A stretch of 64,000 bases of DNA, taken from the NCBI RefSeq assembly GCF_964204645.1, contig NC_134035.1, forward strand, positions 3,844,501-3,908,500. The letters run 5' to 3'. The DNA is from Tubulanus polymorphus (lineage: Eukaryota; Nemertea; Palaeonemertea; Tubulaniformes; Tubulanidae). The notes under the pieces were generated by a model. It was not told the DNA's origin. It did not search any database and worked only from the letters and a program-made list of their open reading frames with translations. The position numbers were made by a program, and so were the translations under genes. The stretch's first letter is position 1. Each line of letters starts with the position of its first letter. Positions 1-58,700 of this stretch are shown in pieces.

Positions 1-1536
1 ACTCAACGTTTGGACTTTATCCTAATAGTCATCTTGTGGAATACTACATTCCAGTATTCCAGAAGACGAATATCTTAGAATATCTCGGAATCTATCGATA
101 ATCTATAGATTATCGTTATAACGCCGACATAGCGTTTTATCAATCGTTAAGGACGGAGGTAGTCGAGAATAAATCGAATTTCAAGCACGTTTCACGTTCG
201 TACGGAATGACGAGGGGTTATTCGGTGCGAGGAAAAAATACGAAAATCTAAAAAGAATTTCGAGACGACGTCATCCGCTCGTAAAATCGCGTCGTCGTCT
301 TCTCGGTGTACAGTTCGTTCGATAAAACTACCGCTACGAACGATCATCAATGAGTTGACGAAGCTTTATTCGGCGAGCGATTAAAAACCGACGACGACAA
401 TTACTTATAAAACATACGAACAAACGAACGTACCGATAAAACGAGGCACACGCGCACGAGCGTACCATCGGGTACGATGTTAAAAACCGCAAGGAAAAAA
501 AATTTTACGGACGAACATCAAAGAGACGAATCGTCGAACGGTATTAATTTCTTTTTTTTTCGTTTCATCTTGTCGGATCTTGTCTCGAGGAAGATTCACT
601 TTTTTGTTCGATCGAGTAAAATGTCGGTAAAAACTACTCGCCCCGATTTCGACGGATAGACGAATGTTATATCAGCAGGCGCACCTGACGACCTGAAACT
701 ATATCTGATTTGAGTTCGTCGATGCTTGGTGTTTTTCAAACTGAATTTTTGACAATTTTCCACGACGAATTACAGAATAAAGCGTGTGATTTTTGAATTT
801 CTCTTTCCAGTCATTGAGCGCGTACAAATGCTGGTTTAATTTGCGACTTCGCATTAGGGGGGCGGATTTCATCGAATATTTATCGGCGCGTCGTCGTCGC
901 AAAACGGCCGCATTGTTGACCGCGTTTGTTATTTCAAAAACATCTTGCACCTCAACGAATCGAACGACAAGTGTCCGCGATTGTGCTGAAGTCGCTTAAT
1001 AGCGTTAAAAGCCATTATCCGTCTGCTGACGAAACGTTAATTTATCGCCTTAACGTCGTCGCGCTCGGAGCCGAGTTTGTGATCTTTTTTTAACCAAATG
1101 ATAAAAGATCGTCGTGCGTAAAAATGTTTCCGAGTACCGTCGTTTATCTTTTCGTTTTTTGAAATCTTCAAAAGCCTTTATCGAATGCATTTGTTGCGTC
1201 AACGGAAAACATTCGACGCAGTCATCGTCGACGAGATAATTATTCGGCTGAACTCGATGCGTTAATCGGGCGAAAAAACTCGAGTACATCGACAAGAGAA
1301 CGGCTTGTGACCTGCTCAAAACCTTTGATAAGGCGATGCAAGCTTCGTACAATGCATTCCATGTTGTAGTAAGAGATCTCTTCTCATTTCTGCCTTCGGT
1401 TTGATCTTGAAATGAGATGAGTATTCTTTTTTGGAAAAAAAACGAACATCCACTCTAAATAATTATTCTATGAGCTTTGGATCCCAGGCGCTGTTTCAAA
1501 TGTGAAAGGTTTTAACGATAACCCGGCGAAGGTATC
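1..1536. other. Intergenic sequence without a supported gene
   Basis: No open frame here has splice-site support or recognisable protein similarity. Positions 3..52 hold a decayed minus-strand copy of the hammerhead-like repeat described at 2205..2470. Positions 150..480 and 830..1100 are rich in CGA/TCG and resemble the base composition of exons elsewhere in the window, but I could not join them to anything. Confidence 0.5.
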
Positions 1537-1540
1537 ATAA

Positions 1541-55700: not shown

Positions 55701-58700
55701 TACAATAGATAGATTTCCCCGTGGCTCGGACCTTTTATTACAAATTTTTCCGCGGGATATTGACCCGTCATCAGGGACCTTCGTGTCAACACATGGAAAA
55801 ATCACGGAAAACTCAGAGGATGATTCGTACATTGATGAAAAGTGGCCACGTCGCAGTATACAAATACGATGCGCAATACTGAAGTCTTACTTAGACATTA
55901 AAGTATCGAAAAAATGATAGCCAATATAGAACCGGTGTTTGTATGTTTACAGTGATAGCGGTGGCTCGGACAGTTCAGTATCAGACGGACTACCTGTACA
56001 TCTACAATACATGAACGATCAGGTATAATCCGAATAGATCATTTCAATATGATCGATACAAACTTAGTACCGCAATTTTTTTAATTTAGGCGTTACTGTA
56101 AATGTAAAATCCTACATTTGTTTAAAGACTAAAAAGTTTATTTGATTACTAGAAATATTTTGGGTAGTTTCTGCCACCCTTCTTCAGTCCAAAATCCAAA
56201 ATGTTTAAACTGAAGAAGGGTGATGGTAGCAACCACCCGAAATATTTCTAGTGTTTTAAGTAAAGCTTTCGACAATATTTTGGGATTTTACATTTACAGT
56301 TTCAATACGTATATCGTGATCTTACTGATTCGTTAGACGTTACTATCGGAGACCAGTACGGTATTACTACGTTCTCGTTCTATCATCCAAAATAGGTCGC
56401 GAAAAAGAAGAAGAAACTGAAATCGAAGAAAGAACGCGACAGTCAACGAAACGCTCAAAAAGACGATAAACCGAAGCTTCCGCCGCACAGTCAATGTAAA
56501 CATCCAACTACGTCACCTACTGCTCTAAAGGTAAATCATACACACACAGTAACGCTCATTGCGACGATCCCAAAATATCAATTTAAACAACTGTTATTGA
56601 TTTTTTCCTGCATTTTAGGAGTGGAATCCTTCCACTCGTCTTTAGTGTTTATTCGAAACATTATTTTCAAATAAACTCTGAAGATGGATGGAAGGATTCC
56701 ACCCCGAAATATTGTGGGTTTCTCTCAATGATGTTCATCAAGTCTCAAGTATTTACGACAGTAACACTCGTTGGTGGACATTTTATGTTGAGCACTAAGT
56801 TCTACCCGACAAAACACCGCATTTCTTTTCCGTCTACTTTTCAGCCTCATATGCGCTTTTCGAATAATTCCGGCAAACGTTCGCGGTCGAAGAACGGCGC
56901 CGACGCTTCGACGAATCCTACGTACGTCGTCAATAATCCGCAGGATTTGTTGAAACCGACCGACGATCCTAAACAGGTATGGAAGAAATATCGGAAGAAG
57001 ATGTCTTTTTATTTGAATAGAAATATGAAACATGTTACTCAAAGTCTAGGTCTTTCCCCCCTTGATAACTGATGAATTCAAACAGAAATGTGGAAGGTGT
57101 TACCGATGCCTTACCCCCCTTGATTTCTTACTTCACATGTAGAGAAATGTGAAACTAAAGGGGTCTTACCCCCTTCATTAATGATGTATTTTAGGTACTT
57201 TTTAATTCCTATACCATGTTACTGATGTTGTATATAAAAGCATTTTTCTGCAAAGTCTGTATAAATCTGTGTATCTAAACATTATTTCAGTCGCGTCATT
57301 CGGCGCCGTCAAAAATAGTCAGTTTTAATCTGAAATACTCGGACATCGCGTGTACCCGCGTGTCCTATCAGGTAAACTCATCGTCGCTATCCGCTCCACA
57401 CGATTCGTACTACTAGAATTTTTCAAATTTTCTTCCCGGCACTTTTTATATCGATGGTGGTTGATTGTATTTAAGCTTTGCGCTCTTTCACCCTGCGTGG
57501 CTTTGGGTAGGTAATGAATATATAGATTGATAAATCCCGAGCCTTACGACTGCCTCGAATTGCACCTGTTTTTCATTCGATAGATAGATGAATATAGATG
57601 AATAGCTAGTTAGAATATCATCTAGATAGTATAGTATACATATAGCCGGGCGAAGGTTGCGCAATCTTGTAATCTGGTTCGAATTATCGAAAAATAATTT
57701 AGACACGATTTTGCTCACAAATCATTCTAAATTTTGCATAATTACATTGTATGATTACTTTAAGACCCATTACGACAGCTGTGAGTTGAATTTGACCCTA
57801 GCGAGTTGTTGTAATTGGAAATGAACTGGTTTCAGCTCTTAAGGTACATATTCAACTCACAACTGACGAACTGGGTCTTGTCCAATACAGATTGTATGAG
57901 AAAACAACTGATTTGAAGAATGTTGATTTTATATAGAGGTTTTTCAGATTTTAGAAGATGCTTTGATCAGTTTTTTTCCTATATTTCATACATAATTGTT
58001 TCATAAATTTGATTTTCATATCTTTCGATTGTACCTCTTTGTAACATTTCATCGCAAATTATTTTGTTAGATTTTATAGTTATGTAGAGTGGAAATGTTC
58101 TAGGATGTATGATTCTGTGTCTCGCATGTTTGAATCGGGTAGAATTCTATCAGAATCCAAACCCATTTTCAATTTTCGTATTGAATCATGTTGTATTTCA
58201 AAAACTTTTACTTACCATAGCTAAACCTGTTTGCATTCTATCAGACCTGAACACCACAATAAAGTTTTATTATATGTATCATGGGTGGATCTCAGAAAAT
58301 TAGAATACAGGGGGTCTCAACAAAAAGGAAGGGCATTCCTCAGATAATGCATGTCAAAGGCCACGAGCCAGGTTTCACCATCAGTGTTAGAATTTTTTGA
58401 AGAAATCCATCCCAAAAGACACCATTTCTGAGAGGATGAGTCAAAATCATACATTTTAATGATCTCTGTCTTGACAAAAAGGGCAACCTCGATGGGACAA
58501 CAGAGTCGCGGACCCCCAAAACCACTCCCTAGTTCTGCGCCTTATAAATATAGAATTTCTTTTGATAATGCCAATTCGAAATGCTTAATTTCAGAAAGAA
58601 TATCTGGAAGCGTTGACGAATGCTCTGTTGAAGAGCGGAGTAATGATGCCGACCGACGCGCCGACCGGTAAGATAGAGTTAGACAATTCTCGTAAATAAT

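What the first reader, a model, noticed from the sequence alone, without database searches (positions are those of the whole stretch)
1..56715. At least four families of hammerhead-ribozyme-like repeats with covarying stem II
Seen directly: more than ten sites read CUGANGA, a self-complementary stem, then GAAA. The stems differ: GACUAU/AUAGUC (2427..2457, 14449, 14769, 15932), GAUCUC/GAGAUC (32438, 32486), GAGGUUU/AAACUUC (38528, with relatives at 38630 and 45819) and GGGUG/CACCC (56210). Different stem sequences with kept pairing and kept core boxes is the pattern expected of a selected RNA structure. Established: the hammerhead consensus is CUGANGA, stem II, GAAA, and hammerhead motifs are reported in Penelope-like retroelements and small retrozyme-type elements of animals. 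Caution: a normal stem III and NUH cleavage site are not clear; stem III would be only one or two pairs, so cleavage would need a dimeric fold or may not occur.
Basis: partly seen in the sequence, partly recalled or inferred. Interest (0 to 1): 0.75.

Follow-up and report, generated by a model that had tools for sequence, protein, structure and literature searches.

The report
Hammerhead ribozymes of Penelope-like retrotransposons
The repeats are remnants of jumping genes (Penelope-like retrotransposons) that carry a very small self-cutting RNA motif of a known type; the useful new hints are where the motif seems to sit on the element's RNA and that inserted copies run across its cutting site.

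Summary
CTGANGA-N8-25-GAAACGTT has 2908 matches in the host genome (268 Mb, unnamed) against 23 in control; GAAACGTV forms add 1436 against 46. Stems I and II covary. Stem III exists only as a self-complementary ACGU, replaced in family F by AUAU, also self-complementary, as expected if two copies pair. The motifs lie beside Penelope-like coding sequence with reverse transcriptase and GIY-YIG domains. This is the known stem-III-less hammerhead of that group: a new member of a known kind. New hints: the core starts near +8 of a TATA/initiator-like start in three families; 552 of 560 copies of one family-A subfamily run across the cutting site, so copies seem to stem from uncut (or re-ligated) RNA; a 69-bp ribozyme satellite lies near contig ends. 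Cleavage could not be tested, and predicted monomer folds mostly disfavour the active form.

The parts
2151..2872 (.). Composite Penelope-derived element: four-copy (about 67-bp) motif array on -, a head-to-head degenerate pair at 2738-2811, GTGGGATT motifs at both outer ends; a palindromic hairpin repeat lies inside (about 2537-2643)
   Evidence: ends read by eye; model hits
2212..2262 (-). family A hammerhead-like motif, core C3 changed to A
   Evidence: R1 E 2.3e-12
2280..2329 (-). family A motif, core C3 changed to A
   Evidence: R1 E 1.3e-14
2347..2396 (-). family A motif, core C3 changed to A
   Evidence: R1 E 5.9e-12
2416..2465 (-). family A motif with intact core boxes, 6-bp stem I, GUU; one mismatch in stem II
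   Evidence: R1 E 8.3e-21 (a training row)
2738..2782 (-). degenerate family A motif, head-to-head with the next
   Evidence: R1 E 0.0026, R2 E 0.064
2762..2811 (+). degenerate family A motif
   Evidence: R1 E 3.2e-10
5..35 (-). partial family A motif at window start
   Evidence: R1 E 1.3e-7
9665..9717 (-). family A motif, 3-nt insertion before stem II, GUC
   Evidence: R1 E 1.1e-9 (not a training row)
14438..14485 (-). degenerate family A motif (lacks the CGTH box)
   Evidence: R1 E 3.5e-4; R2 E 0.22
14761..14810 (+). family A motif, degenerate stem I, UGUU box
   Evidence: R1 E 2.4e-12
15924..15973 (+). family A motif, stem I 5 bp, CAUC instead of CGUC
   Evidence: R1 E 7.1e-16 (a training row)
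32348..32606 (.). Family B head-to-head element: two 124-nt arms, 99% complementary, 11 nt between them; GTGGGATTTTATC near the outer ends
32427..32476 (-). family B motif, intact core, stem II 6 bp, GUC, stem I 3 bp
   Evidence: R1 E 3.3e-16 (training row)
32478..32527 (+). family B motif, intact core, stem II 6 bp, GUC, stem I 4 bp
   Evidence: R1 E 1.3e-16 (training row)
38516..38567 (-). family C motif, stem II 7 bp, degenerate after GAAA
   Evidence: R1 E 0.022; R2 E 0.26; better copy elsewhere, L082
38622..38675 (+). family C motif, degenerate, head-to-head with 38516-38567
   Evidence: R1 E 5.8e-4; R2 E 0.12
45811..45862 (+). family C motif, degenerate
   Evidence: R1 E 0.039; not listed with R2
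56095..56300 (.). Family F head-to-head element with 18-nt perfectly complementary outer arms
56146..56195 (-). family F motif, degenerate
   Evidence: R2 E 2.8e-7; R1 E 0.99
56202..56254 (+). family F motif, GGGUG/CACCC stem II, GAAAUAUU box
   Evidence: R2 E 1e-6; not listed with R1
56669..56725 (+). possible degenerate family F motif inside a 45-nt inverted repeat
   Evidence: R2 E 0.2

Best explanation
The repeats are the stem-III-less hammerhead ribozymes of Penelope-like retrotransposons (PLEs); the window copies are short non-coding insertions. Shown by sequence: conserved cores CUGANGA and GAAA; covarying stems I and II; a GUU/GUC triplet where cleavage should fall; PLE coding sequence (RT plus GIY-YIG) beside four of the families; a self-complementary ACGU or AUAU where stem III should be. 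Inferred: two motifs, on two RNAs or on successive units of one RNA, pair through this palindrome to complete stem III, and cleavage follows GUU/GUC. Inferred from TATA/initiator-like spacing and copy ends in families A, D and E: PLE RNA starts about 8 nt before the core, so cleavage would remove a capped leader of about 41 nt, or cut tandem read-through RNA into units. Genomic copies of one family-A subfamily, and the few family-D copies checked, run across the cutting site, so cleaved linear RNA is not the usual insertion template. Most likely the ribozyme acts on a side path (unit separation, decapping or template destruction), perhaps only with the element's protein bound.
For: Genome-wide excess 2908 vs 23 and 1436 vs 46. 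Covariation on 33 distinct rows: 90.7% of cells paired vs 63.9% re-dealt and 30-45% when slid; 120 cells changed on both sides vs 38.0 re-dealt (palindrome pairs included). A list not chosen by pairing: 40 distinct 34-mers, stem II 87.9% paired vs 68.1% re-dealt, maximum 77.1%. Triplet: among 76 listed GTV sites with at least 5 of 6 stem II pairs, C 68, A 5, G 3. Palindrome core: 32 of 33 rows self-complementary, ACGU 24, AUAU 8. PLE proteins: RVT_1 and GIY-YIG above cut-off in two of three proteins scanned; PLE coding sequence beside families A, B, D, E; 15 of 58 matches are near-complete frames without stops. TATA-like sequence 31 nt before the A of TCA in copies of families A, D, E. 552 of 560 copies cross the site; 10 of 11 family-D copies checked cross it.
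Against: No cleavage assay. ViennaRNA gives stem I a probability near 0 in families A, D and E and about 0.6 in B; stem II 0.01 in E. For a 69-nt satellite unit between two junctions the active fold is -6.0 kcal/mol against -16.6 for the best fold, which hides stem I in another hairpin. Rfam models miss it. The family-A subfamily used for the 560-copy test has an extra A in stem I (GAAATAAA; 3 contiguous pairs), so its ribozyme may be weak; and ligation of cleaved ends would also restore the site. Stem I is short: 0-3 contiguous pairs in 11 of 33 rows. Satellite units keep stem II less well: 13 of 49 fully paired. No TATA-like box was seen for family B; family F is variable. Rows of A2/A3 were chosen with at least 3 of 6 stem II pairs counted one base after CTGANGA, which favours stem II and that offset, not stem I. 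The palindrome change is one family-level event.
Confidence: 0.82

Rival explanations
1. The fold is conserved for a non-catalytic task, for example as the binding site of the PLE protein or as a leader structure, and cleavage is weak or absent.
For: Copies run across the site (552 of 560). In the anole PLE (PMC11167929, main text read) catalytic mutants inserted normally, cleavage needed the protein, and no RNA-seq ends were found at the cut site. Predicted folds mostly disfavour the active form.
Against: The unpaired core and the NUH triplet are kept across families, which catalysis explains and simple binding does not; but the aligned rows were found by that core pattern, so only the genome-wide excess and the triplet tally are independent.
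Confidence: 0.3
2. The 69-bp arrays are a retrozyme-like satellite that multiplies through small circular RNAs cut out by the ribozyme.
For: Tandem motif pairs 781 vs 0 control; in the predicted best fold of a tandem fragment two junctions pair as AACGUU/AACGUU. Animal retrozymes are tandem repeats with hammerheads (PMC7229834, passages).
Against: Unit 69 bp, against 150-450 bp in those passages; stem I hidden in the predicted fold; stem II decays in the arrays; 19 of 22 listed arrays in C1-C5 lie within 1.5 Mb of a contig end, as ordinary subtelomeric satellite may.
Confidence: 0.12
3. Inverted-repeat DNA elements (MITE-like) explain the paired stems; the hammerhead look is incidental.
For: Many copies are head-to-head palindromes.
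Against: Single and tandem copies keep the same motif; stems I and II covary around unpaired core boxes; PLE coding sequence lies beside them.
Confidence: 0.02
4. Chance matches to a short consensus.
For: Several of the 21 window pattern hits have no stem.
Against: 2908 vs 23 genome-wide; model E-values.
Confidence: 0.01

Closest known systems
Minimal hammerhead motifs of Penelope-like elements (Cervera and de la Pena 2014; Lunse, Weinberg and Breaker 2017; neither is held, known through citing papers PMC7761336, PMC6155905 and PMC10085705, passages)
   Same: CUGANGA, stem II, GAAA, stem I, no helix III, in PLE pseudo-LTRs; the title of the 2017 paper says they cleave as dimers
   Different: Several families with their own stems in one genome; self-complementary ACGU or AUAU junction; one extra nucleotide between CUGANGA and stem II in the aligned rows (whether the published motifs have these was not checked)
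PAc, Poseidon PLE of Anolis carolinensis (PMC11167929, main text read)
   Same: HHR with stems I and II, near the ORF start; unprocessed RNA is the main insertion substrate in vitro; sharp copy ends attributed to internal RT start
   Different: Here the evidence is from genomic copies (560 of one subfamily); in family E the HHR lies upstream of the ORF frame rather than overlapping its start; no biochemistry here
Penelope elements of the rotifer Adineta vaga (PMC3846280, passages; the word hammerhead does not occur in its text)
   Same: Head-to-head inverted pLTRs; TATA and TCA-type initiator in the pLTR about 20 bp apart (about 21 bp here)
   Different: No hammerhead is described there
Metazoan retrozymes (PMC7229834, passages)
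   Same: Tandem repeats with type I hammerheads in animals
   Different: 69-bp unit against 150-450 bp; no cis stem III
Newt satellite hammerhead (PMC6155905, passages)
   Same: Tandem satellite; dimeric hammerhead with elongated helix III
   Different: Unit of a few hundred bp there; here 69 bp, near contig ends, derived from a PLE leader

Membership tests
Hammerhead ribozyme | Unpaired core CUGANGA and GAAA | tested here: met
   columns invariant except N7 in 33 rows; the rows were found by this pattern, so the independent test is the genome-wide excess, 2908 vs 23
Hammerhead ribozyme | Stem II with compensatory changes | tested here: met
Hammerhead ribozyme | Stem I with compensatory changes | tested here: met
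   84.8% of cells paired, all 5 pairs changed on both sides in some row; contiguous length 0-6 pairs by row
Hammerhead ribozyme | Cleavage triplet NUH | tested here: met
   GUU 2908; in GTV sites C 86, A 7, G 7 of 100 listed
Hammerhead ribozyme | Stem III within the motif | tested here: not met
   no nucleotides for a cis stem III; only a self-complementary junction that could pair between copies
Hammerhead ribozyme | Match to Rfam hammerhead models | tested here: not met
Hammerhead ribozyme | Self-cleavage | not testable with these tools
   needs bench assay
Stem-III-less PLE hammerhead | Stems I and II only, in pLTRs of PLEs | tested here: met
Stem-III-less PLE hammerhead | Cleavage as a dimer | not testable with these tools
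   ACGU/AUAU palindromes are consistent
Penelope-like element | RT and GIY-YIG in one ORF | tested here: met
   (two of three proteins)
Penelope-like element | Tandem pLTR-ORF-pLTR units and inverted pLTRs | tested here: met
   direct units 2857 bp apart in L011; head-to-head neighbours
Penelope-like element | Target-site duplications | not tested
   not measured
Metazoan retrozyme | 150-450-bp tandem units with full type I hammerhead | tested here: not met
   69-bp units, no cis stem III
Metazoan retrozyme | Small circular RNA | not testable with these tools
   no RNA data

The most novel reading that the evidence does not exclude
The ribozyme is a leader device placed at the very 5' end of PLE transcripts and made to work only when two copies meet: at high transcript level the palindromes pair, the capped leader is cut off and the template is spoiled, which would limit copy number. 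The same motif has also become a 69-bp ribozyme satellite, shorter than the retrozyme units in the papers I saw, spread near chromosome ends.
Probability: 0.12. Interest if true: 0.75.

Novelty: new member of a known kind. Interest (0 to 1): 0.45.

Why it matters
[quoted passage not shown] Genomic copies bear on it: the motif is under structural selection in several families, lies next to the likely transcription start in three of them, and yet copies run across its cutting site. That argues against a required role in making the insertion template and for a side role (decapping, unit separation, copy control) that can be tested on concrete sequences. Two self-complementary versions of the junction give a simple test of dimer action.

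Tried and rejected
Rfam: no hammerhead hit; the sub-threshold miRNA hits listed there fall largely on hairpin or simple repeats and I take them as chance. The 'chance' reading was rejected, a plain MITE reading on covariation and PLE context. A cis stem III was sought by eye in the flanks and not found. The idea that cleaved linear RNA is the insertion template was tested for one family-A subfamily: at most 8 of 560 copies could start at the site. Limits: the exact 22-mer includes an extra A in stem I; (701 hits of a shorter word) shows about 141 further copies with other bases there, not tested; ligated RNA would look uncut. Family D (93 hits): of the 11 places on C1 up to 18.2 Mb, 8 abut an intact motif, one runs on with a small deletion, one runs on with a mutated motif, one (15414615) could not be judged. 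BLAST of the family-A region scored 40 of 1250 candidates, so it shows 3' ends but not the spread of 5' ends. The tail-to-tail pattern (1 hit) is a poor control, because copies carry about 65 nt after the site and full tails would exceed its spacing; orientation of neighbours is the fair test. The 5' ends come from 53 family-A rows of the first 100 listed, picked by eye; the pattern excludes long arms and partners are not independent. The sample of 26 dispersed units was picked by eye. Alignment A1 (28 rows) was cut to A2 (25): two family C rows were misaligned, one row has a 3-nt insertion. One search had 54 distinct rows, of which A2 uses 25, picked by hand for distinctness and intact cores. 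A3 added 8 of 12 family F sites (four were identical to another); family C copy L082 was not aligned; in row L083 stem II is shifted by one base. Host species was not identified.
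Full report
What was checked. The window is G000:C11:3844501-3908500 of an unnamed 268-Mb genome in 77 contigs. Contig C10 begins with CCCTAA repeats, a telomere repeat found in many animals (recalled). CTGANGA-N8-20-GAAA occurs 21 times in the window against 2.73 expected.

Genome-wide. CTGANGA-N8-25-GAAACGTT has 2908 matches against 23 for the reversed pattern. 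GAAACGTV in its place has 1436 against 46, GAAATRTT 772 against 53. Only the first 100 places of each search are listed.

Structure. The bases just before CTGANGA pair with the bases just after GAAACGTH: TATTC/GAATA in A, CAC/GTG in B, CCAC/GTGG in D, CGC/GCG in E, AGA/TCT in F. This is stem I of a hammerhead, and the letters before it are the triplet GUU or GUC. Stem I is short: 0 to 6 contiguous pairs by row, 0-3 in 11 of 33 rows. On 25 rows (A2) 90.2% of stem I and II cells pair, against 70.5% when 3' letters are re-dealt and 29-44% when partners are slid by 1-3 columns. With family F and the palindrome pairs added (A3, 33 rows) it is 90.7% against 63.9% and 30-45%. The number of pairs with a double change alone does not exceed the re-dealt control clearly (9 vs 7.2, 59 of 500; 11 vs 9.7, 96 of 500), and the number of further pair types is not higher; the cells paired, cells doubly changed and the covariation score exceed every shuffle. 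Related rows inflate such counts, as the tool warns. The rows were chosen with at least 3 of 6 stem II pairs, so stem II leans; stem I was not used for choosing. A set not chosen by pairing, 40 distinct 34-mers from the list, has stem II 87.9% paired against 68.1% re-dealt, maximum 77.1% in 1000 deals. One extra nucleotide (T 23, A 9, C 1 of 33) stands between A9 and stem II in the rows as aligned; the choice of rows assumed that offset. A 2023 paper says insertions of one or two nucleotides there occur in known alignments (PMC10085705, passage).

Stem III. There is no cis stem III. The junction core reads ACGU in 24 of 33 rows, AUAU in the 8 family F rows and ACAU in one; the first two are self-complementary, and with GUU they extend to AACGUU and AAUAUU. 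Two copies could pair there and give the A15.1-U16.1 pair and its neighbours (numbering recalled). The CG-to-UA change is one event at family level, so this is support, not proof. One-sided forms (GAAATGTT) also occur in families A, D and E, as decay would give.

Triplet. Of 100 listed GTV sites 86 end in C, 7 in A, 7 in G; among the 76 with at least 5 of 6 stem II pairs the counts are 68, 5 and 3. Few families underlie these numbers.

The element. In L011 two family E motifs lie in direct order 2857 bp apart and enclose an 817-aa frame. Pfam finds RVT_1 (E 4e-12) and GIY-YIG (5.5e-6) in it, and both in the 713-aa frame of L009 beside family D; the 316-aa frame of L010 gave no family. tblastn places PLE coding sequence beside families A (L021, L022), B (L028), D and E, none in the window. 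Families C and F were not tested for this. In the genome 55 of 1839 candidates were scored and gave 58 matches; 15 of the 58 span nearly the whole query without a stop. So these are Penelope-like elements, some probably young, and the window copies are non-coding pieces.

Place of the motif on the RNA. In copies of families A, D and E a TATA-like sequence starts 31 nt before the A of a TCA box, and C3 of the core is at +8 if that A is +1 (counted by hand). Family B shows no such box and has C3 at +3; family F is variable. Family A arms in head-to-head pairs often end at this TCA: of 53 listed arms 26 diverge after 8 or 9 matching letters, 26 earlier, 1 later (long arms are excluded by the pattern). 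I read this as the transcription start; then the ribozyme is about the first 41 nt of the RNA. A similar TATA-to-initiator spacing, 20 bp, is described in a rotifer PLE (PMC3846280, passage). A library search for Penelope, hammerhead, TATA and initiator together found no paper; I saw only the listings; the two founding papers are not held.

Copies across the cutting site. A 22-mer right after the site in one family-A subfamily occurs 560 times; 552 of these carry TT before it. At most 8 of 560, 1.4%, could start at the site. This subfamily has an extra A in stem I, so its ribozyme may be weak. In family D, with four pairs in stem I, 10 of the 11 places on C1 up to 18.2 Mb run across the site and one could not be judged. 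The 3' ends of family A copies lie 65-73 nt beyond the site (40 of 43 BLAST matches), after a GTGGGATT-type motif seen in families A, B, D, E and F. So inserted copies were made from RNA that was whole at this site, uncut or ligated again. This agrees with the anole element, where catalytic mutants inserted normally, cleavage needed the protein, and RNA-seq showed no ends at the site (PMC11167929, main text).

Head-to-head pairs. Short-spaced head-to-head pairs give 298 hits against 0 control (a pair with two good arms counts once per strand). Among neighbours within 1 kb, 14 of 16 and 23 of 23 (the two lists overlap) are head-to-head. The arrangement is known in Penelope elements (PMC3846280, passages).

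The 69-bp satellite. Tandem motifs about 69 bp apart give 781 hits against 0; L029 holds 8.9 units. Of the first 100 places, grouped into arrays, 19 of 22 arrays in C1-C5 lie within 1.5 Mb of a contig end where 10% is expected (arrays are not independent and contig ends need not be telomeres). The window array at 2197-2462 is a four-unit piece; three units have lost C3. In 49 array units stem II is fully paired in 13.

Folding. Predicted monomer folds do not favour the active form in families A, D and E; family B forms stem I with probability about 0.6. In the tandem fragment the AACGUU palindromes pair in the best fold, but stem I is hidden in another hairpin (-16.6 against -6.0 kcal/mol for the active fold).

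Verdict. A new set of members of a known kind: stem-III-less hammerheads of Penelope-like elements (PMC6155905 and PMC7761336, passages). Identity by sequence is close to certain for families A, B, D, E and F; catalysis is likely but untested; the role is open. The site-crossing count and the palindrome swap are the parts a specialist may find useful.

Noticed in passing
Genome-wide; window 32348-32606, 38516-38675, 56095-56300: PLE copies are often head-to-head pairs whose 5' ends meet near the TCA box; in 4 of the 7 junctions with 8-11 unrelated bases between. This would fit priming on both target strands (inference).
   Followed up: partly
C1 31.20-31.40 Mb, C2 30.9-31.5 Mb, C5 0.40 Mb and others; window 2197-2462: 69-bp tandem satellite made almost wholly of the ribozyme motif, clustered within about 1.5 Mb of contig ends.
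   Followed up: partly
L011 and L012 (C1:15219405-15219498 and 15228460-15228526): The same head-to-head junction with the same 10-bp spacer occurs at two places about 9 kb apart, so the junction itself was copied.
   Followed up: no
L009, L011, L022, L028, L073 and window 32348-32606, after the motif: GTGGGATT-type motif shared by families A, B, D, E and F near the 3' ends of copies; possibly the start site of reverse transcription.
   Followed up: partly
window 2537-2643, with similar sequence near 1540-1610 and 14600 (by eye): Near-perfect palindromic hairpin repeat, MITE-like; gives sub-threshold miRNA matches in Rfam.
   Followed up: no
L063 (C4:1-200): Contig C4 begins inside a sequence that reads, by eye, like a PLE GIY-YIG domain.
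   Followed up: no
window 25743-26134 and 61069-61338: A 43-bp tandem repeat (9.1 copies) and a 9/72-bp tandem repeat (TGGTGAAGC).
   Followed up: no
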